NCBI GenBank assembly: GCA_900316875.1 | Contig: ONEP01000127.1 | Coordinates: 1-33,919, forward strand | Direction: 5' to 3' | Origin: Candidatus Ruminimicrobium bovinum | GTDB lineage: Bacteria > Elusimicrobiota > Endomicrobiia > Endomicrobiales > Endomicrobiaceae | DNA length: 33,919 nt | Part shown: positions 3,454 to 33,919 of the stretch, one piece after another | How the letters are laid out: each line of letters begins with the position of its first letter | Position numbering within the stretch: the first letter of the stretch is position 1 | Notes under the pieces: generated by a model | Told to the model about the DNA's origin: nothing | The model's database searches: none | What the model saw: only the letters and a program-made list of their open reading frames with translations | Translations under genes and position numbers: made by a program

Positions 3454-5007
3454 ATGAAAAACATTATAATTCAAGCAGGCGGAAAAGGTTCAAGATTGGA
3501 ATTATTAACAAAAAACAGACCTAAATGTTTAGTTCCTGTTGACAATTTACCAATGATATTTCATTTATTCAAAAAATATCCTGATGCTCAATTTACAATA
3601 ATTGCAGACTATAAAAAAGAAATCTTAAAAAAATATCTTAAAACTTTTGCAGTTGTTAAATATAATTTTATAGAAACGAATAATATAGGAACTTGTTCCG
3701 GAATAAAACAAGCACTGAAATTTATTCCGAATAAAGAACCTTTTATGCTAATATGGTGTGATTTAATATTAAGCAATAAAACAACTATTACTGCAGATAA
3801 AAAAAACAATTACATAGGTATTTCAAAAAAATTTGAATGCAGATGGTCTTATAAAAACAATAAGTTTGTAAAAGTTTCATCAAAGCAAAACGGTGTAGCC
3901 GGATTATTCTTATTTAAAAATAAAAGTTTTATAGAAGATGTTCCAATTGAAGGAGAATTTGTTCAATATTTATCGAATAAAAATATAAGATTTAAAACTT
4001 TTGATTTATATGGAGTAAAAGAAATAGGAACAATTCTTTCATATTTTCAAAATGAATTAAACAAACCTAAAACCAGACCTTTTAATAAAATAGAATTTTT
4101 CAAAAACAGAGTGATAAAAACTTCTGTAGATAAACAGGGTGAAAAATTGGCATTAGATGAAATTGCTTGGTATAAAAAAATTTGTAAATTTAATTTTAAA
4201 GATATACCTCAAATTTATAATTTTTTACCGCTTACTATGGAAAAGATTCAAGGTGAAAATATTTATTTTTATTCTTTTCTAACACACAGTTACAAAAAAG
4301 CTATTTTGGAAAAAATAATCAACGCTATTAACAATTTACATAATATACAATACAATTCGATTGTATTCACAAAACAACAGATAAAAAAAGACTGCTACAA
4401 AGTTTATGTAGAAAAAACATTTGAAAGATTATCCAAAATACAAAATTTAGTTCCTTTTGCAAAGGATGAATATATAACAATAAACAATATAAAATGCAAA
4501 AATATATTTTATATTAAAGATAGTATTATAAAAAATATAAAACAATATTTTCCAAAGCAATTTAATTTTATACATGGCGATTGTACTTTTTCAAATATTA
4601 TTTTAAAAACCGAAGGAGTAGAACCAATTTTGATTGATCCAAGAGGATATTTCGGATCAACTAAATTTTACGGTGATAAAGATTATGATTGGGCAAAATT
4701 ATATTATTCAATAGTCGGTGATTATGATCAATTTAACAGAAAAAATTTTTCTCTTAATATAGGCAGCAAATCTATAGAATTGGCAATAATGTCAAATAAT
4801 TGGAAAGATTGTGAAAATTATTTTTTCAATTTAATTTCTCAAACAGACAATTCAAATATAGAAGAAAAAAGAAAAAAAATAAAGTTATTGCATGCATTAA
4901 TTTGGTTATCGTTGACTACTTATACTTGGGAAGATTATGATTCGATCTGTGGTGCATTTTACAATGGTTTATTATACCTTCGGGATTATCTAAATGAAAC
5001 AAAATAA
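3454..5007 (+). CDS. Fused sugar/choline-type nucleotidyltransferase and choline kinase/APH-like phosphotransferase
   Basis: The N-terminal ~230 residues are a nucleotidyltransferase: the signature AGGKGSRL at residues 8-15 is followed by the PKCLVPV segment, and WCD near residue 103 may bind metal. The C-terminal half is a choline kinase/aminoglycoside phosphotransferase-like kinase: HGD at 374-376 with N381 forms the catalytic loop and D395 in the IDP motif is the metal-binding aspartate. Such pairs (compare the separate LicC and LicA proteins of phosphocholine incorporation) phosphorylate and then CMP- or NDP-activate a small substituent for a surface glycan. The substrate cannot be read from the sequence. 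The gene overlaps the next by 14 nt and sits in a four-gene surface-glycan set. Confidence 0.85.
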   Translation: MKNIIIQAGGKGSRLELLTKNRPKCLVPVDNLPMIFHLFKKYPDAQFTIIADYKKEILKKYLKTFAVVKYNFIETNNIGTCSGIKQALKFIPNKEPFMLIWCDLILSNKTTITADKKNNYIGISKKFECRWSYKNNKFVKVSSKQNGVAGLFLFKNKSFIEDVPIEGEFVQYLSNKNIRFKTFDLYGVKEIGTILSYFQNELNKPKTRPFNKIEFFKNRVIKTSVDKQGEKLALDEIAWYKKICKFNFKDIPQIYNFLPLTMEKIQGENIYFYSFLTHSYKKAILEKIINAINNLHNIQYNSIVFTKQQIKKDCYKVYVEKTFERLSKIQNLVPFAKDEYITINNIKCKNIFYIKDSIIKNIKQYFPKQFNFIHGDCTFSNIILKTEGVEPILIDPRGYFGSTKFYGDKDYDWAKLYYSIVGDYDQFNRKNFSLNIGSKSIELAIMSNNWKDCENYFFNLISQTDNSNIEEKRKKIKLLHALIWLSLTTYTWEDYDSICGAFYNGLLYLRDYLNETK

Positions 5008-18287: not shown

Positions 18288-19012
18288 TGTTCTATAATTT
18301 TTGGTGTTACAAAAATTAAAACATTTGTTTTATTTTCTCTTGTTGTTGTTTTTTTGAATAATGTTCCAAGCAGAGGAATGTCAGACAATAAAGGAACACC
18401 CGAGGTTTGTTTATCTTTATAATTTTCTATTAAGCCGGCAATAACTATTGTTTGTTGATTTTTTAAAACCACATTGGAATATGCCTGCCTTTTTGCAATA
18501 TTCGGATAACCCTGCACGGCATTTGCCCAATCAAGCCTTGAAAGTTCCGCTTCTATTGTTATATCTATTTTTTTATCCGGTAAAATTTTAGGTAAAATTT
18601 CGGTTATAATACCGTATTCCTTCCATTCAACATTCCCGCCTGAAACGCCGGAAACGGCTATAGGAAATTCCCCTCCCACCAAAAACCTTGCTTTTGAACC
18701 GGACTTTGTAACAAGTTTAGGATTTGATAAAACTTGTGCGGAACCGTTTTCCTGCAATAATTTTAATGTTGCACTTAAAGGAGTGTAACGAACCCATTCG
18801 TTAAAATCTACTAAGGAAGGATAAATTGATTTTGCACCTTCGGCTTGGATAAACAATTCTCCTGCAGATATTTCATCAACCCATTTTATACCAAACTCTT
18901 TTGCTTTATTGTTGTTTATTTCTGTTACTTCTATTGATATTTCAACCAACTGTTCAGCATATAAAAAAGCCGAAAAAATAAACAACAAAAATAAAGCAAA
19001 AAGTTTTTTCAT
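18284..19012 (-). CDS. Minimal secretin (RcpA/CpaC-like C domain only)
   Basis: 242 residues. A signal peptide at about 1-19 (ends LYA) is followed directly by the secretin core: VEISIEVTEI, LSATLKLLQENGSAQVLSNPKL, GGEFPIAVSG, YGIITEILPKI and the C-terminal SGVPLLSDIPLLGTLFKK with the final LIFVTPKII. Secretins form outer-membrane rings for pili and secretion systems. Family members normally carry N0/N1 or BON periplasmic domains of 100-300 residues before this core; none is present here. The start overlaps the gcvT stop by one base (TAATG). Confidence 0.88.
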   Translation of the reverse strand: MKKLFALFLLFIFSAFLYAEQLVEISIEVTEINNNKAKEFGIKWVDEISAGELFIQAEGAKSIYPSLVDFNEWVRYTPLSATLKLLQENGSAQVLSNPKLVTKSGSKARFLVGGEFPIAVSGVSGGNVEWKEYGIITEILPKILPDKKIDITIEAELSRLDWANAVQGYPNIAKRQAYSNVVLKNQQTIVIAGLIENYKDKQTSGVPLLSDIPLLGTLFKKTTTRENKTNVLIFVTPKIIEQ

Positions 19013-20085
19013 TACAATTTCGTCCTCTTATAAAAAGGTTTTTGAACTACTAAAACTTCCCTCAAATTATTATGAACTTTTACTTGTATTTTTGAATTGA
19101 TATCGGTATTATAATCAACCAAAGCCATTGCTATTGCTTTTTTTAATGTAGGAGAAAAAGAACCGCTTGTAACATAACCTACTTTTTTATCATCACAATA
19201 AACTTCATCACCTGCACGTGCTATACCGTTTTTACAAATAATTGCAATTGATTTTTTCAAAGGTTTATCTTTAAATTTTTCTATTGCAGTTTTTCCGATA
19301 AAATTTTTATCCCAAAAAATTGTTTTTATAAAACCCGCATCTATGGGATTTATGTTTTCTGTAATTTCATGCCCGTGTAACGGCATACATGCTTCAAGCC
19401 GAAGTGTGTCCCTGCAACCTAATCCGCAAGGTGTTGCACCTGATTCAATCAACTTTGTCCAAATATATTCGGCACAACCGTTTGAAATTAAAATTTCAAA
19501 ACCGTCTTCGCCGGTATAACCCGTTCTTGCAATTTTTGAAAAAGCTGTCTGCTGTCCTTTAAATTTAATATCTTTTGCCGTAAAATATTTCATTGAAGAA
19601 ATATCTTCATCGGTAAGTTGTTTTATTATTTCAACGGCTTTAGGACCTTGTACTGCAATCATTGAAATTTCTTTACTGATATTTTTTATTTCGACATTAT
19701 CAGTTTTATTATCGTTTAACCATTTAAAATCTTTATCCAAATTACCGGCATTTACTACCATCATATAATAGTCTTCAAATTTATAAACTATAATATCATC
19801 TTTTATACCGCCGTTTTCATTAAGCAACATAGAATATCTTGCCTTGTGCAAAGGTAAATTTGCCATATCAGAAATTGTAACATAATCTAAAAATTTACCG
19901 GCATTTGAACCTGAAATAATAAAAGTTCCCATATGCGATGTATCAAAAATCCCAACGGAATTTCTAACTGCATTATGTTCCTGAATAATGGAAGTGTACT
20001 GAACAGGCATATCCCAACCGCCGAATTCCGTAAATTTTGCATTTAATTTTTTATGCTGAGGGTATAAAAAGGTTTGTTTTAACAT
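19012..20085 (-). CDS. gcvT: Aminomethyltransferase, glycine cleavage T protein
   Basis: 357 residues, typical length. Moves the aminomethyl carbon to tetrahydrofolate in glycine cleavage. The start KQTFLYPQHKKLNAKFTEFGGWDMP, then VGIFDTSHMG and ARTGYTGEDGFEI, are diagnostic of GcvT and its relatives. GGAG lies 8 nt before ATG 20085 and a good promoter lies 29 nt further upstream. The neighbours downstream are pilus genes rather than gcvH or gcvP, with a one-base overlap, so folate metabolism and pilus genes share a transcript here. Confidence 0.93.
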   Translation of the reverse strand: MLKQTFLYPQHKKLNAKFTEFGGWDMPVQYTSIIQEHNAVRNSVGIFDTSHMGTFIISGSNAGKFLDYVTISDMANLPLHKARYSMLLNENGGIKDDIIVYKFEDYYMMVVNAGNLDKDFKWLNDNKTDNVEIKNISKEISMIAVQGPKAVEIIKQLTDEDISSMKYFTAKDIKFKGQQTAFSKIARTGYTGEDGFEILISNGCAEYIWTKLIESGATPCGLGCRDTLRLEACMPLHGHEITENINPIDAGFIKTIFWDKNFIGKTAIEKFKDKPLKKSIAIICKNGIARAGDEVYCDDKKVGYVTSGSFSPTLKKAIAMALVDYNTDINSKIQVKVHNNLREVLVVQKPFYKRTKL

Positions 20086-20234: not shown

Positions 20235-23200
20235 TTATGCAGCGGCAAGCATTGCCCTGTAATCTCTTGAATCATTTTCATCAGATAGTTTTTCTACTTT
20301 ACTATTCTTTTCATCCATTATTATAGGTATTAATACTATCAGTTTTGTTACATTATTATCAATATCAGTTATTATTTTGTTATATTCTTGTTCTAACTCA
20401 ATTCCGGTCATTTTTTCATATTCATTCAATTGTTCTTGATATAGTTCTTGATCTATATCAATATTTCCTTTATTTATCATCTTTACCAATAACTTTTCTA
20501 AATTTTTATTTTTATTATTTTGTGCTATTTGTACATTTTCTACCGTTACTTGTTTTATTACTTTTTTTGCTTCTATCCTTGCTTCTATTGTTGTTTTAAA
20601 TACTTTCTTTTTATCTTCTGATATGGAATTATACATCATCATTATTTCATTGTTTTGTTCCAAACTTTCCCATTTTACAGGTATTTTATCAAATGAAACA
20701 TTATATGCCATTTCTTCTACGTCTTTTTCGGTTAATTGTCCTATTCCGAAAGTTGTTTTTATATTTCCCATTAATGTTTCAAACATATCATAAACTTCTA
20801 AAATATCGGATGTTTGATTATTTTTTAAAATACCTTTCAAATCTTCTATATCTATTAACAATGATTTTTCCGAAGAAACAATTTTATTTTGTAATCCTTG
20901 TATTGTTATATTTCCATCAACTTTTTCTATATCTTTTATTTCTTCTTTAGTGTCAAATTCTTTGATTTTATCTCCTTCTTTAATGTATACTTCTATTCCT
21001 TCTTCTCTTAATTTAAATAATTCGGCTTTACTTAAACCTAAATCATTCATTTGTTCTTCCGTTATTACTTTCCTTGCTTTTCCGTTATTTAAAGATTGTA
21101 TTAACGATACTTTATCTTCAATACTTTCCAATGATATTATCATCTTATCCGCTAATGTATACCCTATTGTTTGTTTTATGGAAGATAATGTTTTAAATTC
21201 GTTAATTATTTCAGTTTGTGTTTGTCCGTTTATTTTATTAACTATCATTATACCGTCTTCAAAAATTATATTACTGTTTTCAAAATCTTTTTCTTTCTGT
21301 TTCTCTTGTATATAATTATTATCCTCTACTACAATATCCGATTTCACTTTTATATTTTTACCGATTTTATCCTTTATCAAATCTTCCAATACTTTACTTT
21401 CGTTCAATACTTGGGCAACATCTTTTGCACTTGCTCCGCTTCTTGTTCCAAGTATTATTGCTCCGGCTTTTTCAACCGCAAATACACTTTCACCTTTTTC
21501 CGTTTTCAAACCCGTATTTCTTAAATTATCATATCCTAATCCTTCCAAACCTTTAGACATTACATATATCGGCAAAACTATTTCCTTTTCATTTTTTTCT
21601 TGTGCAACTATTTCTTTCATTTCCAATTCTATTGCTATATTATTTGATATTGTATTAAACAATTCTTTTCTTGTTTTTATTGCTTTAAAATCAAGTATTA
21701 CATGCAATCCTATATTTGATGCAAATATTGAAGTTATAAATGCTATTAAAACCGTTGTTAACGGTATTGCAGGCAATAATAAGCCGACAATCCCTACTAT
21801 TACCGGTATTAAACAAGATGTTATTGTTAATATCATTGCGGTTTGTTGAGATGCAGCACCTTTTTCTTCGTGCTTTTTTGCAAAATTAGGATTATATACA
21901 TTTAAAAATTCCTTCCAAGCTATTCCTAACAATATTCTTAATGAACTTTTTCCGTCGGAAATCGATTTATTCACATAATCTTCATTTCCGGGAAGAATTG
22001 CCGCTTTGTTAATATTAGCATTCATTAAAAGATTGTCCATTAAATTAGCAAATATACGAACATTACTAATATCCATTTTTGACTCATGTTGTCTTAATAT
22101 TTTCAATATACCGTTTAATAAAGTTTGAGTTCCTACAACAAGAGTAGTATGATTTATAATATTGTCTGCTATATTATTATATTCCTCATTGTCTGAATAT
22201 TTCATTTTAAGAAGAACTTTTATTTCATCAAAAGTAAATGAAGATTCATTTTCATCTCTTTCTTTATCCATGTTTTTATGCAAGAAGAAATAAACATTTG
22301 TTATTTTACCGGAATTTATATCCTTATTAATCTGTTTCATTAATTCATAAGGTTTTGCTTTTATCGTTCCGTCTTTACCTTCTTCCAATATATCATTATC
22401 TCCATCTCTATAATATTCATACCATTGTTTAGAAATATTTTTACATATAGCATCCAACATTCTTACTTTTGAAGAATATCTGTTATCCGATTTTATTCTA
22501 TATTCAGATCTTCCAAGAGAAAGAACTTTATTACCATCTTTATTTTTCATTTCATTGACAGCTTCAACAGGCAATATAATTCTATTTTCGAACAAACCAA
22601 AAAATTCTTCTACTGAAATTTTTTTCCTGTTTGTTTTTATACTTATGTTTTCGTTTCTATCTATATTATCATCATCGTTCAGATCTATATTAGTATTTTC
22701 AAAAATATTACTTTTTTCTTCTTCAATAGATATTAAAAAGTTATCTTTATCGGTAAAATCCAAATAATAGGCATTCAAATATTTATTATATTGTTCATTT
22801 ATTTCATCTTCAACATTAGTACCTTCAAAAGTTTCAGGGACATTTTTATAATCAAATTTAATCTGTATTGTTATTATATCTTTTAATATGTTTCGATGTT
22901 CTTCATTAAACAAATTCAACAATTTAACGATTCCCAATAATGAAATATTTTCAAAAAATGTTTTATTATTATCTAACATAAATCTAAAATACTCGGAAAT
23001 AAAATCATCATAATAACGAAACTCTTCACTTCTTAAAAGAATAATATCAAACACATCTGTTTCCAATCCAATATTTATCATCTCTTTAACATCGTCCATA
23101 TCCGCATTATCATTTCTTAATTTGTCTTTTAAATATTCTCCTCTATATTGTTGTTTTAATTTATTTTTTTGAGAAAAAGGAATATAATTAAAAAATTCCA

Positions 23201-26200
23201 AACCGGAACGTTTTGTTAGTGAGGATATAATCAATAAATCAAAATACGTAAGTCCTTTATTGGTTGATATATATTTATCAAAAGAATCATTAAGCGGAAT
23301 AGTATCTTTAGCTACGATATCCCCGTAAGAAGATTCACTCATTGCAAAAGGCAAACCAATTTTATCTAATTGTTCTTCACTTAAACCAAGTTCTTTAAGT
23401 TTTAAAGTTACTGTTTTTAAAGTATTTTCTTCTATAAAAGAGCCAAAACAACAACTAAAATGAAGAAATTCATTTTTCAAATTAATTTTATCCAAATTAT
23501 CAATATTTTTTTCTACCGTTTTTTTAATAATTTCAGCAATCTCATCAGGACTTAAATATAGCAATTCAGTTATTATTTCATTTAAAGAATTTATTTCTTT
23601 TTTATATTTCTCATTTTTATTCGTATATTTATTATTAAATTCATTTAAAATTGTTACAAAAGATTTTATATCCGAATTTAATATTCCAAATTTATCATCA
23701 TAAAAAATTCCGTGTCCCGAAAACAACCAATATTTTGTTCTATCCGAGTTAATATAACTGTTTTCAAATTGACCCCTAATATATATTGAATTTATTAAAT
23801 TATATTTAGCCATATTTAACTTTTGTTTATCTTGTAAAAAAATATCAGATTCATATTGTAAAACATTATCAGCTTCAGAAATACGGTTATCTATAAAAAT
23901 TAATAACTTTTCTATTTTCTCTTGTTTTTCTTTAGGCAAAAAGTCTATCTTTCTTAAAAGAAGTTTATTTTCATTTTGTTTAATAATATTTTCTTTTGTT
24001 TCTTCTATCTTCTTTCTTAAAGGTTCTTTTGTTTCTTCAACTAAACTTTTTCCATTTTCTTCAAATAAAACTTTATTATTTTTTGTTATTTCATTGAAAC
24101 TTTTACTATCAAAAATACTTCCATACTCATTTTTACATCTTTTTTCTATATTCTCATATAATTTTTTTGAATTCCATGCAGGATTAGCCAGCCTTTCTAA
24201 TAATTTATTTATTATATTTTGTGTCGCATTAATAATATTATCGGACTTTGTAATAATTTTAAGTTTTTCTTCAATAACTATAGTTTCAAAATCATTTATA
24301 GGTATTCCGAATATTTTAATTTCAAATTCTGATAAAATATCTTTTATATCTTTTTCGTTAAAAAAATTATTAAAATCATCCTTGTAGCTTATAAGCTTAT
24401 ACGAATCATCAAACGATATTCCCGCTTGTTTATAATTTTTAGTTAACTTATCGTTATTATGTAACCTGCTATTGTCATAAATTGTTTCACCTTTTTCATC
24501 AAGAAAAGAATAAGGCAGTACACCTACAAAACTTAATTGTTCATGAGTCAACACTAATCTTTCTAAGTAGTTGTTTATCATATATTCATCATTAAAAAAC
24601 ATATTAGAAGTAAACTTTATTTTTTCATCAGATATATCCATATCGTTCAAGTTCTTTTCTTCTATTTCTAAAATATCTTTCATAAATTTAGCCAATTCAA
24701 CAGCTATGGTATATTTTATAACATCATAATTTATACCGGTATTTTTATTTAGCTCATTTAATTTCTTTTTAAAATAAGAATTTTCAAAAATTATATTATA
24801 ATCATCATTTAAAAATATTTTTAATGCTAAACAGTTATTGTTAGTATCTATTCCTTCCCTATCAAGACCTTTTTCACCAAGTTTTTCAAAAAGAGTTATT
24901 ATTTTATTTTTATATTGTTCATTTTCATTTATACCTATTAAAAATTTCCCCAATAATTCTAACTGTTCGTTTATCAGTTGTTCATGATAACTTCCTTCAC
25001 TATAATGTGTTTCAATTCTTTTAATTAAATTATCAATAGGATAACCTTTTCCTTTATATTCTGCAGGAATATAATCTTGCGGATTTTGTTGCAATAACTT
25101 ACTTTCATAAGTTTTATTGTTTAAATATTTTCTTAAATTTTCATTCTCAATAATATTTTCTAAATCTTCTTTATTTTGAATTTTACTTAATTTTTCATCT
25201 TCGAAAAGATTTTTCAAATCTGTTTCTGTTGCAGGCAATTTATCATGAATAATCTTTAATATTGTTTCATTAGGTTGTTCGCCTGCTAAAATTATATGAT
25301 AAAGTATTGTATTAGCATCACCGTCTTTTACTCTCTGTTCTATTTCGTCGGAATATATTCCTTTATACGATTTATTAACTCTATATGATTTTTTCACATT
25401 TCCATTTTCATCCGTTATTTCATCTTTTATTGCAGATATCATTTGTAAACATTCATTTGGATATTTTTCTTCAAAATATTTTAAAGCATTATACAAAACG
25501 GACTGACAACCGAAATCCGATTCATTTACTTTTTTTTCAAAATCTTTAATAAAATTTTCATCTTTACCTTCAAGATAAATATCAAAAATTTTGTTTCGTA
25601 ATTCTAATTGAGATAATCCGTCAAATGTATTTCTAAAACCGCTAAATTCTTTTGAAATCATTAATTTAACAATTATCTCCGACAATTTTTTTCCGGTAAA
25701 AGGTTCACCTATTATATCCATCACTTCCATAAACATTTCCGAAAAATTGTGTTCTTCATTAAAAGGAATAAATGAAAAATTATCCGTTTTCTTTTCATCT
25801 TTTTTATCTTCTTCATTTAATGAATATTCTTTTGAAGCAATATAAGCAAATAACTCATTTAAAGAAAGCCCTATTTCATTTTCATTTTCAAAACCGGCTT
25901 TTTTAACAAAAATATGCATTAATTCATGTATAACAGTATCATTCAAATCATCTTCAAAGTCTACTGAGAAAGCTAAATCGGAATATGCCCTTTTTATCAA
26001 ATAAATTGTAGGTAATCTCCCTAAAAATATAGCATTAGGTATTTTTTCATACATGCCTTGTAAAATTTGAGCTTTTTCTTCCGATTTACCGGCAATATTT
26101 GCCAATTCGGTAAAATCTTCTTCCAAAATTAACATTATTCCGGCAATATGTGCTTTTAAATCAAAATTATTTTTTATATTGTTTCTGTAACCTTTTGTTT

Positions 26201-29200
26201 TTATCTTTTCGTTATATTCTTCTTTTATTTCATCTTCAACTTTTTTATCTGTATTTTCACCTAATATTTTTAAATACATTAAAGCATATAATCTGTGTTC
26301 TATTTTATTATTTGTGTTTTTTAAATAATTTTTAAGTAATTCCGTTTTCTTTTCTCTGTATAAATAGTAAATATAAGCATAATTATTAGAACCTTTGTAT
26401 TCTCCGTTACTAAATTTTTCAGAAGTAACTCCGTTATCAATAAATTCATTTAACAACTTTTCTTCTTCATTTCTATAGCTATTTCTTTGTTCGCTACCGG
26501 CATTTAAATTAGGATACTCTAAAGTATTATCTTTGTTAATTTCTCCTGTTTTATTTATGAAATCTATTTGGTCATTAATATTCCAATTATCATTAAAAAC
26601 AATATCACCTTTAGCAGTATAATATCTGCGATTAATTGCTTGTGTAATTAAATTTACACCGGGGATATTACTAAATAATGCTTTCCCTATAAAAGATGCC
26701 TGATATTCTTCCGATGATATTGATATATCGGTAACTTTTTCTGAAGGTAATTCAACAATTATTGTTTCTTTTTTTAATTCATCCTCCAACTGTTCTTCTA
26801 AATTATAACCTTGGGATTTTATATTTTTTATTTGTTCTTTAATATTTATAGTTACATTATTACCTTTAGTATCTTTTTTTATTTCATCATTTTGTATTTC
26901 CGTTTTCAATTCTACCCATTTTGTTTTTTTACTCTCAATTATTTCAAAATATAAAATTTTTTCTTCTTTATTTTCAGTTTTTACTTTTACTCCTATAAAT
27001 TTTTTACCGGCATTATTTTTATATTGTTTTATATATTTATTTCTATTATCATTATAATCTTCCGGTAATTTTATATTTTCTTTTTCTCTTTTATTGTATT
27101 GTTTTATTTGCCCATTTAAAATAAAATCCCAAATATATTTTCCATTTTTATTTTTTTCATTTATTATTTGCTTTATATCTTCATACATATTCTCTTCATC
27201 TTCACCTGTTTCTGTAGTATATCTGTTACTTATGGTATTATAACTATCTACATTTTTTTCGACTTTTAAAAATTTATTTTGTCCTATTTCTAAAATAAAT
27301 CCTTCTTGTCCACCGGTTAATGCATAAACCGGAAGATTTAAAAGTTCGACCATATCAACTAAATTATATGCAAAATTATGAATTAATTTTTCATTGTTTA
27401 ATACAATTTTGCCATCATTATTTAATGGTAATTCATTATCAAAAGTTCCTTTTGTGTCTTCTACTATTCCTTCCCTTAAAATAGATTGTTCTATCTCGAA
27501 TTTATCAATTATAGAATCATTATATTTATGCCCCGTCAATGTTCTTAAAATTTTAAGTTTATTACCTTTGATTTCATATTCTTCTACTTTAGCATGTAAT
27601 TTTGACTCATCCATATCTATTTCATATAAACTATCTAAGTTACCTTGTGCTAATAAATTATCTTTATCGGAAGTTTTTACTTTTACTATTAAATTTCCAT
27701 CTACTTCTTGATATGATACTCCTTTGATATTTTTTAATATTTTAGATAATTCTCTAACTTCTGCATCGGATAATTCGGCTTCTTTTTTATAAATTTCTAA
27801 CTCATTATGATATTTATCATATTCTATTTCTATTTTATCGGTCAATTCTTTGTTACCTGTTTTCAACATCATATCTTTTATGTTTGTAAAAATTGTAAAA
27901 GGTATAATATCTTTAAAAAATTGAGTATTTGAACTGTCAGTATCAATATACACATGATTAATTTCAAAATTTTTATAATTTTTATCATCTTTATTTATTT
28001 TTGTTATAATTTGAGAAATATACTCCAAACTCTCAAAGAAATATTGTCCTTCAAAATCTATATTACCGTATTCACCTCCGTCGTTTTTATCACCGTCACT
28101 TTCATTTGTTTTATTAGGTCTAAAACCCGGAATATCTTCCATAGACATAATATGCATACTGTCTTCATCAAAATGGCACATATATTTCTGAATTAATTTA
28201 CCTTCTTTAAAATAGCCAACCACAAAAAAATTATCCAAAAATAATCTGTTATTTCTATAATTTTCATTATTTTGACCATTTGCCAATCTGCCGGTACAAT
28301 CTCCGGTAATATAACCGGCATTTAATGCTTGTGTATAAGTCATTATGCAAGGACCGTCTTTTAATAAAGAACATTGAAAATCATAATTATTTTTATTTAA
28401 AATTTTAAAATCTTCTTTATATCCGCTTTCATTATTATTTTTTAAAACCGTTACAATTGCCAGTAATATATCGTCTCTATAAACATTAAATATTTGTCCT
28501 CTTTTATATTTTCTGCCATTTATTGTTATATCTTTGTTTTCATTTTCTTTTATTTGGCTTACAGAAAAACCTGTCCAACTTTCAAATATATCATCGACAT
28601 TTTTATATTCACCGTTATCATAATTGCCCTTAAACTTTTTCCATATACTGTTTACTTCTGTCTTGCCGTTAATATTTCGTTTTTCTGCAACAGTTAAATC
28701 TCTCAAGTATTGCGGATTTTTTTGAACAAACTCATTTATATCTCCATCAAAGGCAGGTCTTATATATTCTTTTAAATTTGCAATTGATTTTATTGAACCG
28801 TCCAAAAACATTTGTCTGAACACATTCGGCAATCTGTCAAAATCCTTTATTTCCAACATATCGCTATCGTCATTTTTCATACCCAATTTTTGTTCTGCCT
28901 TTATTTCATTTTTAAAGATATCTTTTCTTTGTTCGGATTGTTCGGATGTAAACAATTCTTTAAACAATTCTTTATTGTTATATAATTTAGTTAAATTATT
29001 TCTTTTGTTCTTAAGATAATTATCACTTTTAATTTCAACCTTATCAAAATCATCAAAAGGATATGTTTTATTGTTATTTTTATCGTGAATTACCGTTCCT
29101 TCTTTTTCTTCATTATAATATTCAAAAACAAGTTTTGATGATTTGTTAATAAACTCTTTTTTTTGTTCTTGTGTTATTCTGCCCATTTTGCAATTATTAA

Positions 29201-32200
29201 GTAAAATATCAAATGAAATACAATGATCATTTATGCTGAAATCAAAATAATCTATCTTAAGCAATAATTTATTAATTTTTATATCTCTTATAATATTTTT
29301 AACAGTATCTTTATCCGTTATACCATATTCATTATTTAGGAAAGAACATATATTTTCAAATGATACTTCAGAACCATCATAAGAATTAACCATATCGGCA
29401 AATCTTTTTTCATTATCATAAATATCGTTAACTCTTTTATACATGTTTTTATTTTTTATGTCTTTTACAATATTTTGAACTGTATTTTTTTCATACTTTA
29501 TTCCTTTTTTATCTAAGAGTTTAAAAATTTCATTAATATTATAAGAATTTACAAATTCAATAAATTCTTCATCTTCGTTATAAATTTTATTTATAATATT
29601 ATACAGTTTAGCATACAAAATATCTTGCTTAACATATTTAACTACTTTTCTTACATCGGATTCACTGAAATATCTTTTTTCTACAATATTTGCTTTTATC
29701 AACAAATTTTTTATTTCATCAAAAGACGGATTATTTTCATCATAAGAATCTATTAATTCGGCAAACTTTTTATTTTTATTATAAAGGTCTGTCATTTGTT
29801 TATTCTTTATTATTTTATTATTCTCTATCATATACTCAAATGAACTGTCACTTTGATACGGACGAGAAATTCTATAATGAATGTCTCTCATATTTCCTTT
29901 TGTTATTAACTCGTAATAATTATCGTTTGTTTTAGCATTATCATCTAAATTAATTATAAACTGACCTACATTTTTATTTAAAGCCAAATAGAACAAAGCA
30001 TTATACGGAAATTTTGCCGGATTTTCATTATATTTTATTGTAAACAAACTAATAAGATCGTCTGTTAATTGTTCTTCATCACACAAGTTTTTAACATCTT
30101 TAATATTTTTTTTGGAAAGAATATCTTTATTTTCAATCAACAAATTTAAAACTGGAACAGCCAATATTCCAAATTTACCACTAATATCAAATAGCAATTC
30201 TTTATTATCATTAATAAAAGATTTACCGTCACTTGTTTTCCCCAAATCTAAAATAAAATCTATAAACATATAGTTAGCAGTGTTGTCGATTTTATCAACG
30301 GAATAACGGAAACAATCTTTGTATATATTAAATGCAAAAACAAGATTTTCATCACTAATATCCGAAAAATATTCATTATCATGTTCATATAAAAAATTTA
30401 ATCCTTCAATAAACCTCTTTATATGTTTTGAGTCAAAAGAAGAAATTTTTGCATTTTCGTATAAATTATTTACTAATTTAAAATTGTCTTTTATAAAATC
30501 ATAATTGTTATTTAAAACCGATATATTCTCATCTATTTCTTCAACTATATTTACATTTTTTAATATATATTCAATCAAATCTTTAAATTCAAATAAAAAT
30601 TCTTTCTTATCTATTCGTTCATCAAATATTTTTAATAATTTATAACTTTGTTCTTCATAATCTTTGTATGCAAGATTTTCTTTAAAATATTTTATTTTAT
30701 CGGCAACTAAAACTAATAAATCGAAATTTTCCGATATAAAATTTGTTGTTATTATTTTTTCCAAAAACCATTTTTCAACACTTGTCGGCATATCAATATC
30801 TTTGGTCAGTTCAATATATTTATCTTTTTCATTTTTTCCGGTTTCAGTTAAATATTCATTCAAATACTCCACATAAAAAAATCTTCCATCCGAAATTTCT
30901 TCTAAAAGTTCTTCCATTGATAATTTATCATTAATATTTTTATTACCGACATCAAAAATACTTAGACTACGATATTCTAAATCAGGTAATTTGTTTATTA
31001 AAGGAATTTTGCTTTTTATGTTGTTTACGATATTTGTGATATTTTCAGCAAATTTTTCGTCTTCATTCCAATGCTTATGGAAATCAGTTGCGGTTATTGT
31101 TGATAATAGCATCGGTATTAATGTTGTTAATACGGGTGCTGCAAACGGAACTATCGGTAAAATTGTTGATATTAATGCTACAGGAACTAACGGTAAAACC
31201 ATTGATACTGCTGCAAAAGGTATTATATATGATGCTGTTAATATTAATGCGGGAATGCTTAAATCTTTTATGTCTTGTTTTGCAAAATCTTTAAAACTTT
31301 TTCTATTCCCTGCTGCATCTTTATCAGTAAGCCACCTTACTATAGTGTGTGAAAATAAAAACAATGCAACAAATGCCGCAAACAATGCAATACCGGAAAC
31401 AGTAAGTAACGAACCGAACAACAATCCCGATAATATTGTAGGTGCAACAAAAAATATATTTTCCCATATATGTGCATATTTATTTAACATCCCACCTATT
31501 TTTGTATTTTGCAACGAAGAAAAAATAGAAAGTTGTACATTTTTTCTTATATAACTATCTTCTACATCATGTCTTGCATCCTGTATATAAAATGTGTCAA
31601 CAAAACCATTATCTTTTAAAACTAACACATATAATTCACCTTCTATTTCTTTTTTAAATACTTTTTTTCCATCATTTTCTTCTTCAGTACCTTCTCTATA
31701 CACCTCAATCATATTATCTTCTATCTTATCAATTCTTATAGAATGTTTTAAAGAAATATTTGGAGCATAAAGATTAAACATATTTTCGGAATATTCCAAG
31801 TTAGCTGTTATGGGGCAGTGTGCATCACATATATGAACAAAATTTTTACGACTTAACTTTAACTCTTTATCATTTTCAACATGAATTGTAATTTGTTCTC
31901 TATTGCCATATTTGTTTTCCCAACAATAAACCGCATAATATTTTGATAAAACTTTTAACATTCTTTCTCTATTCAACACCAATTCTGAAATAATATTAAA
32001 CCTGATTTCATTAAATTCTTCACCTGTGTATTCTCTGGCTATATCTATGTTAAGTTGTGATACAGCTAAAGCTAATTCTTTTTTTGAAAAATACAAATAT
32101 CCATCTTCGTCCCTATCACTATTACTTTTAATATCAATCAAATCTCTTAGCATTTCATCATATAGTTTAATATACAGTTCTTTCTTATAATCAGAATTTA

Positions 32201-33919
32201 ATGCTGTATTGTATTGATATGGATATGAATATCTGAAAAAAGACATATCTTCACCAGAAATATCATTATTATAGAAAAATATGCTTTCATTATTTTTATA
32301 TGTCCCAGTAAAACCTGAAATATTGATTAAATTTCCAAAAACGAAATTAATTAATAAATCCTTGGCAAGTTCTAACCTCTCTTCATCATTATCCATTAAA
32401 ATTCTTATAGCTTCTTTTAAACTCATATTTTCATATTGAAAATTAAAATCTAAAACATCAATATACTCATCCATTTTTTCTGCAGGAATAATACTGCTTT
32501 CTTCCATATTTTTATTCATTTTAAATTTTTCTTTTCTATAATCTGCAACATTATTAAAGAAGTTTCTCAATATCTGTCTATTGGAACTTTCAATGTTAAT
32601 TATTTCCAATGGTTTATACTCTAAGTTTAAATCTATCAATTTATTTAAGTTATTAATTATTGGTGTACCTTTTTTATTCCAAATATAGTGAAAAAGTATT
32701 GAAATCAATGAAGGAATTACTACTAATGCCAAAGGTGATAAGAAAGGAAAAGTTATTGATAAAATTGTGAAAGGTATTATGTATGAAATTGTTACTAATA
32801 AAGAAGGGAAACCTAAATTTTTTAAATCTTCTTTTGCAAACTTACCTAATGTTTTTAAACTCCAATTCCCCGCATCTTTTGATATCGTTATCCACTTTAC
32901 TATAGTGTGTGAAAATAAAAACAACACTTGCATAATAGAAAAAAATGTAGGTGATACTGCCATAGGAATTGTTCTAAATACCATTTCTTCCCATACCGGT
33001 GCATATTTATTTAATACAGAACCTATCTTCGTGTTTTTTAACGGAGAAAAAATTGAAAGGGAAAATTTTACAAAGTTATCAAAATCAATTTGTTCTTCTT
33101 GTTCAAGAGATGTTATTCCTAATTCTTTTCTAAATTTGTTATCTAACTTTTGCTTTTTTTGATAAAATTCGTAATCATAGACAATAATAGATGGTGTAGA
33201 ATATTTATATTTTTTCCAGGATAGCAATAAATTTTTGATGGAAAAAGCACCATTATTTTGAATTTCATCTTTGTTGTTATCCATATAGTATATAGTTGCA
33301 TATTCAAAAGTAGATATATCATAAATATTATTATCTTTTCTAAAACTAACACCTGAACTGTATTTATAATCTTTATTTGTAGAAGTGATTATTATTGGAA
33401 TCAAAATTCCTTCTTTTAATTCAGTTTCTATTATTTTATTTATTTCTTCACGATTTTTCCCTTCCGCTCTTAATTCCCGTATTCTTTGATTTATTATTGC
33501 ATTAATAAGTCTTTCCGCAAAGCCGAATGAAACACAAGAAGCTAAATTTATTATCATATTATTCATAACGGCACCGTTATTTTTAGCTTCAATTATAGCT
33601 TCTGCTGTCTGTTTTACCGTAACAAAATCCATATCTTCTTTATTTTTATTTTTTTCTCCTCCGGTAACGAAATAAAGAACACCTCCGTTTGAATGTCCGT
33701 TAAACACATACATAGTTTTTTTTGATTTATCGGAATATTGCTTTTTACTACCTTTTATTGCTCTTAAAAAATTATTTGAAGAATTTATTTCTTTTCCATC
33801 AATATTATCTCTTATATTTATATTCATTCCCAAATTTTCAAATCTGTTTTTTATTAAATTCATTCCATCAGACGAGAAGCCATAACCATTACCGACATAA
33901 ACATCTGTTCCGCTTTCAA
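20235..33919 (-). CDS. Giant multidomain protein with several protease-like modules (5' end missing)
   Basis: The frame is open to the right edge; 18 more codons (ESGTDVYVGNGYGF...) precede the first in-window ATG at 33863, so at least 4,560 codons exist. Numbering from that ATG: caspase-like region with His57 and Cys110; CPBP-type membrane protease 270-400; a degenerate second copy 778-940; helical stretches; three ~57-residue repeats 1358-1535; an unassigned segment with GDCTG at about 1854-1858; HELMH metalloprotease motif at 2646-2650; second caspase-like region with His3384 and Cys3471; third CPBP-like hydrophobic segment 3970-4070; Lys/Glu-rich C-terminal region ending RAMLAAA. Most of the chain between motifs is unrecognised. 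No signal peptide can be judged without the true N-terminus. Giant proteins are known from several uncultured bacterial phyla. Function is unknown; a self-processing surface or predation/interaction factor is a guess. Confidence 0.9.
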   Translation of the reverse strand, partial: ESGTDVYVGNGYGFSSDGMNLIKNRFENLGMNINIRDNIDGKEINSSNNFLRAIKGSKKQYSDKSKKTMYVFNGHSNGGVLYFVTGGEKNKNKEDMDFVTVKQTAEAIIEAKNNGAVMNNMIINLASCVSFGFAERLINAIINQRIRELRAEGKNREEINKIIETELKEGILIPIIITSTNKDYKYSSGVSFRKDNNIYDISTFEYATIYYMDNNKDEIQNNGAFSIKNLLLSWKKYKYSTPSIIVYDYEFYQKKQKLDNKFRKELGITSLEQEEQIDFDNFVKFSLSIFSPLKNTKIGSVLNKYAPVWEEMVFRTIPMAVSPTFFSIMQVLFLFSHTIVKWITISKDAGNWSLKTLGKFAKEDLKNLGFPSLLVTISYIIPFTILSITFPFLSPLALVVIPSLISILFHYIWNKKGTPIINNLNKLIDLNLEYKPLEIINIESSNRQILRNFFNNVADYRKEKFKMNKNMEESSIIPAEKMDEYIDVLDFNFQYENMSLKEAIRILMDNDEERLELAKDLLINFVFGNLINISGFTGTYKNNESIFFYNNDISGEDMSFFRYSYPYQYNTALNSDYKKELYIKLYDEMLRDLIDIKSNSDRDEDGYLYFSKKELALAVSQLNIDIAREYTGEEFNEIRFNIISELVLNRERMLKVLSKYYAVYCWENKYGNREQITIHVENDKELKLSRKNFVHICDAHCPITANLEYSENMFNLYAPNISLKHSIRIDKIEDNMIEVYREGTEEENDGKKVFKKEIEGELYVLVLKDNGFVDTFYIQDARHDVEDSYIRKNVQLSIFSSLQNTKIGGMLNKYAHIWENIFFVAPTILSGLLFGSLLTVSGIALFAAFVALFLFSHTIVRWLTDKDAAGNRKSFKDFAKQDIKDLSIPALILTASYIIPFAAVSMVLPLVPVALISTILPIVPFAAPVLTTLIPMLLSTITATDFHKHWNEDEKFAENITNIVNNIKSKIPLINKLPDLEYRSLSIFDVGNKNINDKLSMEELLEEISDGRFFYVEYLNEYLTETGKNEKDKYIELTKDIDMPTSVEKWFLEKIITTNFISENFDLLVLVADKIKYFKENLAYKDYEEQSYKLLKIFDERIDKKEFLFEFKDLIEYILKNVNIVEEIDENISVLNNNYDFIKDNFKLVNNLYENAKISSFDSKHIKRFIEGLNFLYEHDNEYFSDISDENLVFAFNIYKDCFRYSVDKIDNTANYMFIDFILDLGKTSDGKSFINDNKELLFDISGKFGILAVPVLNLLIENKDILSKKNIKDVKNLCDEEQLTDDLISLFTIKYNENPAKFPYNALFYLALNKNVGQFIINLDDNAKTNDNYYELITKGNMRDIHYRISRPYQSDSSFEYMIENNKIIKNKQMTDLYNKNKKFAELIDSYDENNPSFDEIKNLLIKANIVEKRYFSESDVRKVVKYVKQDILYAKLYNIINKIYNEDEEFIEFVNSYNINEIFKLLDKKGIKYEKNTVQNIVKDIKNKNMYKRVNDIYDNEKRFADMVNSYDGSEVSFENICSFLNNEYGITDKDTVKNIIRDIKINKLLLKIDYFDFSINDHCISFDILLNNCKMGRITQEQKKEFINKSSKLVFEYYNEEKEGTVIHDKNNNKTYPFDDFDKVEIKSDNYLKNKRNNLTKLYNNKELFKELFTSEQSEQRKDIFKNEIKAEQKLGMKNDDSDMLEIKDFDRLPNVFRQMFLDGSIKSIANLKEYIRPAFDGDINEFVQKNPQYLRDLTVAEKRNINGKTEVNSIWKKFKGNYDNGEYKNVDDIFESWTGFSVSQIKENENKDITINGRKYKRGQIFNVYRDDILLAIVTVLKNNNESGYKEDFKILNKNNYDFQCSLLKDGPCIMTYTQALNAGYITGDCTGRLANGQNNENYRNNRLFLDNFFVVGYFKEGKLIQKYMCHFDEDSMHIMSMEDIPGFRPNKTNESDGDKNDGGEYGNIDFEGQYFFESLEYISQIITKINKDDKNYKNFEINHVYIDTDSSNTQFFKDIIPFTIFTNIKDMMLKTGNKELTDKIEIEYDKYHNELEIYKKEAELSDAEVRELSKILKNIKGVSYQEVDGNLIVKVKTSDKDNLLAQGNLDSLYEIDMDESKLHAKVEEYEIKGNKLKILRTLTGHKYNDSIIDKFEIEQSILREGIVEDTKGTFDNELPLNNDGKIVLNNEKLIHNFAYNLVDMVELLNLPVYALTGGQEGFILEIGQNKFLKVEKNVDSYNTISNRYTTETGEDEENMYEDIKQIINEKNKNGKYIWDFILNGQIKQYNKREKENIKLPEDYNDNRNKYIKQYKNNAGKKFIGVKVKTENKEEKILYFEIIESKKTKWVELKTEIQNDEIKKDTKGNNVTINIKEQIKNIKSQGYNLEEQLEDELKKETIIVELPSEKVTDISISSEEYQASFIGKALFSNIPGVNLITQAINRRYYTAKGDIVFNDNWNINDQIDFINKTGEINKDNTLEYPNLNAGSEQRNSYRNEEEKLLNEFIDNGVTSEKFSNGEYKGSNNYAYIYYLYREKKTELLKNYLKNTNNKIEHRLYALMYLKILGENTDKKVEDEIKEEYNEKIKTKGYRNNIKNNFDLKAHIAGIMLILEEDFTELANIAGKSEEKAQILQGMYEKIPNAIFLGRLPTIYLIKRAYSDLAFSVDFEDDLNDTVIHELMHIFVKKAGFENENEIGLSLNELFAYIASKEYSLNEEDKKDEKKTDNFSFIPFNEEHNFSEMFMEVMDIIGEPFTGKKLSEIIVKLMISKEFSGFRNTFDGLSQLELRNKIFDIYLEGKDENFIKDFEKKVNESDFGCQSVLYNALKYFEEKYPNECLQMISAIKDEITDENGNVKKSYRVNKSYKGIYSDEIEQRVKDGDANTILYHIILAGEQPNETILKIIHDKLPATETDLKNLFEDEKLSKIQNKEDLENIIENENLRKYLNNKTYESKLLQQNPQDYIPAEYKGKGYPIDNLIKRIETHYSEGSYHEQLINEQLELLGKFLIGINENEQYKNKIITLFEKLGEKGLDREGIDTNNNCLALKIFLNDDYNIIFENSYFKKKLNELNKNTGINYDVIKYTIAVELAKFMKDILEIEEKNLNDMDISDEKIKFTSNMFFNDEYMINNYLERLVLTHEQLSFVGVLPYSFLDEKGETIYDNSRLHNNDKLTKNYKQAGISFDDSYKLISYKDDFNNFFNEKDIKDILSEFEIKIFGIPINDFETIVIEEKLKIITKSDNIINATQNIINKLLERLANPAWNSKKLYENIEKRCKNEYGSIFDSKSFNEITKNNKVLFEENGKSLVEETKEPLRKKIEETKENIIKQNENKLLLRKIDFLPKEKQEKIEKLLIFIDNRISEADNVLQYESDIFLQDKQKLNMAKYNLINSIYIRGQFENSYINSDRTKYWLFSGHGIFYDDKFGILNSDIKSFVTILNEFNNKYTNKNEKYKKEINSLNEIITELLYLSPDEIAEIIKKTVEKNIDNLDKINLKNEFLHFSCCFGSFIEENTLKTVTLKLKELGLSEEQLDKIGLPFAMSESSYGDIVAKDTIPLNDSFDKYISTNKGLTYFDLLIISSLTKRSGLEFFNYIPFSQKNKLKQQYRGEYLKDKLRNDNADMDDVKEMINIGLETDVFDIILLRSEEFRYYDDFISEYFRFMLDNNKTFFENISLLGIVKLLNLFNEEHRNILKDIITIQIKFDYKNVPETFEGTNVEDEINEQYNKYLNAYYLDFTDKDNFLISIEEEKSNIFENTNIDLNDDDNIDRNENISIKTNRKKISVEEFFGLFENRIILPVEAVNEMKNKDGNKVLSLGRSEYRIKSDNRYSSKVRMLDAICKNISKQWYEYYRDGDNDILEEGKDGTIKAKPYELMKQINKDINSGKITNVYFFLHKNMDKERDENESSFTFDEIKVLLKMKYSDNEEYNNIADNIINHTTLVVGTQTLLNGILKILRQHESKMDISNVRIFANLMDNLLMNANINKAAILPGNEDYVNKSISDGKSSLRILLGIAWKEFLNVYNPNFAKKHEEKGAASQQTAMILTITSCLIPVIVGIVGLLLPAIPLTTVLIAFITSIFASNIGLHVILDFKAIKTRKELFNTISNNIAIELEMKEIVAQEKNEKEIVLPIYVMSKGLEGLGYDNLRNTGLKTEKGESVFAVEKAGAIILGTRSGASAKDVAQVLNESKVLEDLIKDKIGKNIKVKSDIVVEDNNYIQEKQKEKDFENSNIIFEDGIMIVNKINGQTQTEIINEFKTLSSIKQTIGYTLADKMIISLESIEDKVSLIQSLNNGKARKVITEEQMNDLGLSKAELFKLREEGIEVYIKEGDKIKEFDTKEEIKDIEKVDGNITIQGLQNKIVSSEKSLLIDIEDLKGILKNNQTSDILEVYDMFETLMGNIKTTFGIGQLTEKDVEEMAYNVSFDKIPVKWESLEQNNEIMMMYNSISEDKKKVFKTTIEARIEAKKVIKQVTVENVQIAQNNKNKNLEKLLVKMINKGNIDIDQELYQEQLNEYEKMTGIELEQEYNKIITDIDNNVTKLIVLIPIIMDEKNSKVEKLSDENDSRDYRAMLAAA
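21654..21956 (-). other. Third CPBP-like hydrophobic segment
   Basis: Hydrophobic helices after WKEF (from W3983) end in H4054-VIL-D4058, resembling the HxxxN motif of the first module. The EExxxR motif is not present, so this is a remote or decayed relative, or an unrelated membrane hairpin. Confidence 0.35.
23274..23846 (-). other. Caspase-like (clan CD) region 2 of the giant protein
   Basis: YWLFSGHG with His3384 and HFSCCFGSF with Cys3471 (and Cys3472) repeat the strand-His and strand-Cys layout of region 1, with a longer helical insert (87 rather than 53 residues between His and Cys). Confidence 0.5.
25464..26066 (-). other. HExxH metalloprotease-like module
   Basis: VIHELMHIFV gives H2646-E2647-xx-H2650. 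E2670 in SLNELFAYIA, 20 residues further on, is placed where gluzincins have their third zinc ligand. Confidence 0.65.
29260..29792 (-). repeat. Three tandem repeats of about 57 residues inside the giant protein
   Basis: Each unit has Y(N/D)..(K/E).F....NSY, then a helical stretch, then V..IV.DIK.....K. Units begin near residues 1358, 1424 and 1479. The pattern suggests a small helical domain; it resembles no named repeat with certainty. Confidence 0.65.
31044..31532 (-). other. Degenerate duplicate of the CPBP module
   Basis: Aligns closely with the first module (NTKIG..LNKYA, FLFSHTIV.W, FAK.D...SYIIPF). The catalytic EExxxR reads E801-N-xxx-V, while H839 and the final H929-xxx-N933 remain. 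Probably not catalytic. Confidence 0.65.
32664..33056 (-). other. CPBP-type intramembrane protease module with a complete signature
   Basis: Three conserved CPBP (CAAX protease/bacteriocin-processing) motifs appear in order: E292-E293-xxx-R297, F315-xxx-H319 and H392-xxx-N396. They are set among hydrophobic stretches fit to cross a membrane. Confidence 0.7.
33264..33919 (-). other. Caspase-like (clan CD) region 1 of the giant protein
   Basis: A hydrophobic strand then NGHSNGG with His57, followed 53 residues later by a second strand and ASC with Cys110, then IIITST near 157-162. This is the His/Cys dyad layout of caspase-fold peptidases (C14, C11, C80, CHAT). The upstream DVYVGNGYGF stretch, read before the first ATG, probably forms the first strand, so the domain extends to the window edge. 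Confidence 0.55.

What the first reader, a model, noticed from the sequence alone, without database searches (positions are those of the whole stretch)
20235..33919. Giant protein combining several unrelated protease signatures in one chain
An uninterrupted frame of at least 4,560 codons carries two His/Cys caspase-like dyads, one full CPBP signature plus two weaker relatives, and one HExxH...E motif. Three peptidase classes in one chain, two of them repeated, is unusual. Seen directly: the frame and motifs. Known: the motif definitions of CPBP, clan CD and gluzincin families. Inferred: that it self-processes or acts on membrane targets.
Basis: partly seen in the sequence, partly recalled or inferred. 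Interest (0 to 1): 0.85.

Follow-up and report, generated by a model that had tools for sequence, protein, structure and literature searches.

The report
Secreted giant protein with three proteases
A gut-type bacterium (Endomicrobiaceae) encodes a huge, probably exported protein that carries a caspase-like protease, a membrane-embedded protease and a zinc-protease-like module in one chain, and it belongs to an undescribed family of giant multi-enzyme proteins that share the same front end and the same last few amino acids.

Summary
The frame is real: 4,560 codons, minus strand, 5' end cut off by the contig edge. Catalytic motifs are conserved in homologous giants of other Endomicrobiaceae (Elusimicrobiota). 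The first caspase-like domain keeps His75/Cys128 in 15/15 copies at 16-27% identity to the window copy, folds like caspases (Foldseek 3e-5), and its profile hits GPI transamidase (C13, clan CD). It is fused to a CPBP membrane-protease domain (EExxx[RK] in 21 of 24 copies), linked stepwise to Pfam Rce1-like. HExxH...E residues are invariant in 11/11 copies, but the fold is unproven. The second His/Cys dyad is inconclusive; one 'weaker CPBP' is a degenerate homologue, the other is not CPBP. Four giants carry all three classes in the same order. The family is broader: 15 contigs of this MAG carry a new ~560-aa N-terminal domain behind a signal-peptide-like segment, and 36 of 40 large frames with a 3' end finish in [ILM]x[ASC]A, even without a shared C-domain. 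Other giants carry HD, PPDK, aldolase-GAPDH or PGI-PGM enzymes. Best reading: an exported, membrane-anchored polyprotein whose peptidases process giants (itself or others) or act on a host. Processing is inferred, not shown. No description found in the papers searched.

The parts
20235..33917 (-). Giant reading frame, 4,560 codons plus stop; 5' end runs off the contig, so the conserved N-terminal domain is missing here
33075..33854 (-). Caspase-like (clan CD, C13-like) domain, residues 22-281; His75 (33693-33695), Cys128 (33534-33536)
   Evidence: H and C invariant in 15/15 copies; caspase fold by AlphaFold2 plus Foldseek E 3.1e-5; profile hit to GPI transamidase E 2.1e-4; Pfam Peptidase_C13 in 7/15 copies
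32673..33065 (-). CPBP (Rce1-like) membrane protease domain 1, residues 285-415: WEEMVFR, FLFSH, HYIWN
   Evidence: motifs conserved across copies; profile comparison with CPBP domains in other giants prob 98.5, E 1.6e-15, which in turn match stand-alone CPBP
31065..31535 (-). Second CPBP-like domain, residues 795-951, motif 1 degenerate (ENIFFV), probably inactive
   Evidence: homologous by profile, catalytic E and R lost
25479..26387 (-). HExxH domain, residues 2511-2813; H2664, E2665, H2668, E2688
   Evidence: H, E, H, E invariant in 11/11 copies; weak profile resemblance to M1 aminopeptidase ERAP1, E 0.22; no significant fold match
23424..23771 (-). Candidate second caspase-like dyad, residues 3383-3498 (H3402, C3489); inconclusive
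   Evidence: in-register but chance-level profile score; no homologues
21678..21860 (-). Hydrophobic transmembrane hairpin module, residues about 4020-4080; similar stretches recur in other giants; not CPBP by profile
20238..21458 (-). Conserved C-terminal domain, residues 4154-4560
20238..20261 (-). C-terminal tail YRAMLAAA, matching the ending common to the giant family
   Evidence: 36 of 40 large frames versus 0 of 101 smaller ORFs

Best explanation
The frame encodes a protease-rich member of an Endomicrobia family of exported giant multi-enzyme proteins. Members start with a signal-peptide-like hydrophobic segment and a new ~560-aa N-terminal domain and end in a fixed [YIV][RK]x[MIL]L[AS]AA tail (seen in the sequences of relatives; the window copy lacks its start). 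In this member a C13-like caspase domain fused to an intramembrane CPBP protease, a degenerate CPBP copy, a zinc-protease-like HExxH module and a terminal hydrophobic hairpin plus C-domain would give a membrane-anchored protein with large soluble parts on the outer side of the inner membrane, or beyond the cell (inferred). Most likely mechanism (inferred): after export the caspase-like and CPBP units cleave the polyprotein, in cis or on sister giants, freeing soluble parts from their membrane segments; the HExxH modules act as further processing enzymes or as effectors towards a protist host or neighbouring cells.
For: Catalytic residues stay fixed while the rest diverges. Caspase and CPBP domains are neighbours in 14 of the 15 aligned copies (the caspase-like domains of L195 and L197 lack it). 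Giants with all three classes occur in three genomes (two in this MAG), always with casp-CPBP before the last HExxH and the C-domain. Homologous giants start with signal-peptide-like segments. Other members carry soluble enzymes with no obvious reason to be linked, such as PGI-PGM, aldolase-GAPDH and PPDK, which fits a polyprotein. Caspase-like and CPBP-related PrsW domains are proposed releasing peptidases of secreted bacterial toxins (PMC3482391). Rumen relatives are suspected ciliate associates (PMC11257099).
Against: No cleavage site, transcript, peptide or localisation evidence. Several giants lack detectable peptidase modules, so cis-processing cannot be universal. The window copy lacks its N-terminus, so its signal segment is inferred from relatives. 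The HExxH fold is unproven. The signal segments were judged by eye, not by a predictor.
Confidence: 0.45

Rival explanations
1. The peptidase domains are effectors, not processing enzymes: the giant is delivered towards a protist host or neighbouring cells and cleaves their proteins, the hydrophobic modules helping insertion or membrane crossing.
For: Host association of the family; rapidly varying interiors; a PBECR3 nuclease-like hit in one member and an LPD13 hit in another; peptidases are common toxin domains.
Against: Present also in relatives from anaerobic digesters (Praeruminimicrobium, Proruminimicrobium); glycolytic enzymes are odd effectors; no delivery system was identified.
Confidence: 0.25
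2. The giants are surface or periplasmic scaffolds or adhesins, and the protease-like domains mainly serve turnover or peptide binding.
For: Giant proteins in other bacteria are often surface proteins (PMC11573180, PMC10066038); some copies are degenerate.
Against: Catalytic residues are conserved in most copies; no adhesion repeats were seen in the Pfam scans.
Confidence: 0.15
3. The motifs are chance or eroding remnants in an AT-rich giant gene.
For: Asn/Lys/Ile-rich composition; HExxH alone occurs in 4.6% of shuffles; the second dyad is at chance level.
Against: Invariant catalytic residues, a significant caspase fold match and the profile chain to CPBP; long frames without stops in many genomes.
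Confidence: 0.05

Closest known systems
Polymorphic toxins with caspase-like or PrsW releasing peptidases (Zhang et al. 2012, PMC3482391)
   Same: Constant export-linked N-terminus, variable enzymatic body, embedded caspase-like and CPBP-related membrane peptidases
   Different: Here the C-terminus is constant and the interior variable; no immunity gene follows; several peptidase classes in one chain
Polyvalent proteins of phages and conjugative elements (PMC5512222)
   Same: Many unrelated enzyme domains in one chain with internal metallopeptidases proposed to autoprocess; one giant has an LPD13 domain
   Different: Chromosomal MAG contigs, signal-peptide-like start, very long, no relative found among viral contigs
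Giant ORFs of Omnitrophota and huge proteins of Elusimicrobiota (PMC10066038, PMC11573180)
   Same: Very long frames with transmembrane helices and few annotated domains, in small host-associated bacteria
   Different: The passages read mention no conserved N-domain, C-terminal tail, casp-CPBP module or glycolytic cargo
Peptidase family C13 / clan CD (legumain, GPI transamidase)
   Same: His/Cys dyad, caspase-type fold, profile similarity
   Different: Divergent and fused to CPBP; the window copy itself is not matched by the Pfam C13 model
CPBP / Rce1-like intramembrane proteases (PF02517)
   Same: EExxxR, FxxxH, HxxxN in order across hydrophobic helices
   Different: Short helix core embedded in a giant chain; the window copy is not matched by the Pfam model directly

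Membership tests
Clan CD (C13-like) cysteine peptidase, domain 1 | His and Cys dyad, each after a hydrophobic strand | tested here: met
   H75 and C128 invariant in 15/15 copies
Clan CD (C13-like) cysteine peptidase, domain 1 | Caspase-type fold | tested here: met
   AlphaFold2 model, Foldseek top hit caspase-11, E 3.1e-5, probability 1.00; mean pLDDT 69
Clan CD (C13-like) cysteine peptidase, domain 1 | Sequence similarity to family C13 | tested here: met
   A3 profile to GPI transamidase E 2.1e-4; Peptidase_C13 best E 3.3e-5, 7 of 15 copies, not the window copy
Clan CD, second dyad (3402/3489) | Profile similarity above chance | tested here: inconclusive
   in register, but shuffles score as high
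CPBP / Rce1-like | EExxxR, FxxxH and HxxxN motifs | tested here: met
   domain 1 keeps all; domain 2 lost motif 1
CPBP / Rce1-like | Homology to known CPBP proteins | tested here: met
   only stepwise: window group to other giants prob 98.5, those to stand-alone CPBP prob 91; direct comparison 4%; shuffled controls 0.1% or less; PF02517 above cut-off in several giants including this MAG
Gluzincin-type metallopeptidase | HExxH plus downstream Glu ligand | tested here: met
   invariant in 11/11 copies
Gluzincin-type metallopeptidase | Zincin fold | tested here: inconclusive
   best Foldseek E 0.77 to unrelated folds; LasB appears at E 3.2
Polymorphic toxin | Variable C-terminal toxin tip | tested here: not met
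   C-terminal tail constant, interior variable
Polymorphic toxin | Immunity gene directly downstream | tested here: not met
   the next gene (19012-20085) is a glycine cleavage T-protein homologue
Polyprotein | Actual cleavage into separate products | not testable with these tools
   needs proteomics or expression

The most novel reading that the evidence does not exclude
Endomicrobia run an undescribed export route for giant polyproteins: a signal segment and a ~560-aa N-domain at the front and a [ML]LxAA tail at the back define the cargo, and dedicated protease giants such as this one mature the others, releasing outside the cytoplasm a second set of enzymes including glycolytic ones.
Probability: 0.2. 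Interest if true: 0.92.

Novelty: new variant of a known kind. Interest (0 to 1): 0.72.

Why it matters
It ties giant genes of a little-studied, protist-associated bacterial lineage to recognisable enzymes and to a shared head and tail, which makes their export and processing testable. In one relative (G018) the frames carrying the N-domain add up to about a tenth of a 1.8 Mb genome (my sum of the frames listed, some with interior stops), so their function is likely to matter to these bacteria.

Tried and rejected
Pfam and PDB sequence search of the window protein alone: nothing useful. NCBIfam scan of twelve homologous giants: metabolic and regulatory hits, no peptidase. TraB/TIKI-like origin of the N-domain, suspected from the H..EGG..GGYH pattern: no support from Pfam, PDB profile search or a PF01963 genome search in this genome; left open. 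Viral relatives of the casp-CPBP module: none among 70 candidate stretches. Joining the cut 5' end to another contig of the MAG by end overlap: none among the loci fetched. Similarity between the giant and its neighbouring genes: none significant. Direct profile match of the window CPBP to stand-alone CPBP: weak (4%), only the stepwise route works. 16S identification: no rRNA match in the MAG; the family was inferred from named relatives.

Full report
The frame. The window is a complete 33,919-bp contig of a 1.89 Mb, 284-contig MAG. The largest frame runs on the minus strand from 33917 to the stop at 20235, 4,560 codons, and is open at the contig edge. G+C of the frame is 24.9% against 30.4% for the rest. 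The named relatives that carry its C-terminal domain are Endomicrobiaceae or unclassified Elusimicrobia, phylum Elusimicrobiota. No rRNA was found to place the MAG itself.

Family. A paralogue of 3,718 codons on contig C62 shares 52% identity over the last ~600 residues. The C-terminal ~610 residues match 19 of 150 genomes (the MAG included), mostly in long frames up to 6,758 codons. Comparing the window protein with those giants shows shared regions at residues ~20-440 and ~790-950, ~2500-2890, and ~3964-4560.

Caspase-like domain. His75 and Cys128 are invariant in 15 copies from the window and 13 other giants, at 16-27% identity to the window copy. The AlphaFold2 model (mean pLDDT 69) matches caspase-11 at Foldseek E 3.1e-5. 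The alignment profile finds GPI-anchor transamidase at E 2.1e-4, and Pfam Peptidase_C13 is hit in 7 of 15 copies, though not in the window copy. I regard this domain as clan CD, near C13.

CPBP domain. It follows the caspase domain through a linker with a conserved ELSIF motif. EExxx[RK] is kept in 21 of 24 copies that cover it, with FxxxH in 23 of 25. Direct comparison with stand-alone CPBP proteins is weak (4%), but the window group matches CPBP domains in other giants (98.5%, E 1.6e-15) and these match stand-alone CPBP (91%, E 1.1e-6); column-shuffled controls gave 0.1% or less. Both comparison sets were picked by an EExx[FYW]R-type pattern, which favours alignment at motif 1. Independently, PF02517 exceeds its curated cut-off inside several giants, one of them in this MAG (C261; a second scan of the same protein put it just below the cut-off, 20.8 against 22.4 bits). 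Residues 795-951 are a copy that has lost motif 1.

HExxH domain. H2664, E2665, H2668 and E2688 are invariant in 11 copies. The model (pLDDT 70) has no significant structural match; the best sequence lead is the M1 enzyme ERAP1 at E 0.22. Metal binding is likely by motif; the fold is open.

Not supported. The dyad at 3402/3489 is aligned in register but at chance level, without homologues. A third CPBP copy was not found.

Architecture. Four giants, two in this MAG and one each in G016 and G005, carry all three classes with casp-CPBP followed by HExxH and then the C-domain; G016 and G005 have further CPBP or HExxH copies earlier in the chain.

The wider family. A ~560-aa N-terminal domain behind a signal-peptide-like segment occurs in 57 of 199 genomes examined, with frames of up to more than 11,000 codons. 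In this MAG it occurs on 15 contigs. It has no convincing Pfam assignment; the best member hits were DUF1722 at 2.1e-6 and SYF2 at 2.1e-5, in few members, which I do not take as an assignment. Of 40 frames of at least 900 codons with a closed 3' end, 36 end in [ILM]x[ASC]A; of 101 ORFs of 250-900 codons none does; RpoB- and RpoC-like frames are two of the four exceptions. Many of the 36 were fetched because they share the C-domain, and some are overlapping fetches of one gene, so this is not a count of independent genes; but eleven giants with a closed 3' end and no C-domain hit also have the tail.

Cargo. Pfam finds HD, PPDK, LMWPc, metallophosphatase and PBECR3 domains, aldolase plus GAPDH in C86 of this MAG, PPDK in a 4,935-codon giant, and PGI plus PGM in a 3,031-codon giant. 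All 14 genomes tested have a PGI match; 13 have a full-length stand-alone-sized one and eight have a second one inside a long frame, in four cases within ~10 kb of the stand-alone gene. The embedded PGI of G018 aligns throughout with the stand-alone enzyme.

Mechanism. Export and membrane anchoring follow from the signal-like segments of relatives and the hydrophobic CPBP and hairpin modules; cleavage is proposed by analogy with caspase-like and PrsW releasing peptidases of polymorphic toxins and the metallopeptidases of polyvalent proteins. Neither step is shown. The family fails two polymorphic-toxin criteria, a variable C-terminal tip and a downstream immunity gene, so I say it may work like one, not that it is one.

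Literature. Elusimicrobiota are known to be rich in huge proteins of unassigned function, and a term search of the Endomicrobia genome paper found no mention of giant genes, effectors, toxins or proteases. Searches of the held library found no description of this family; most subscription journals and preprints are not held.

Noticed in passing
L202 (G018:C2:40400-50500), L209: A giant with signal-like segment, N-domain and family tail contains a full PGI and PGM; a stand-alone PGI gene lies directly upstream, and the same pairing on one contig recurs in G008, G036 and G025.
   Followed up: partly
L186 (G000:C86): A truncated giant of this MAG carries a GAPDH C-terminal domain and a class II fructose-bisphosphate aldolase after the N-domain.
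   Followed up: no
window 20238-20261 and ends of giants in L041-L203: Near-universal C-terminal tail [YIV][RK]x[MIL]L[AS]AA across giants with different interiors; it resembles tails read by PDZ or tail-specific proteases (from memory, untested).
   Followed up: partly
L007 (C62 giant), L009 (C267 giant): Stretches such as EAMKNAFYHGN and EILKNAFVHGN look by eye like the N-box of GHKL ATPases, repeated in the C267 giant.
   Followed up: no
G009, single-contig 1.6 Mb genome of the same family: No N-domain giants were detected there, while relatives have many; many small genomes of genus g7 also lack them and a few matches in the family have interior stops, suggesting loss in some lineages.
   Followed up: no
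L060 (G044:C88): A giant starts about 1.6 kb downstream of genes that look like rpoB and rpoC.
   Followed up: no
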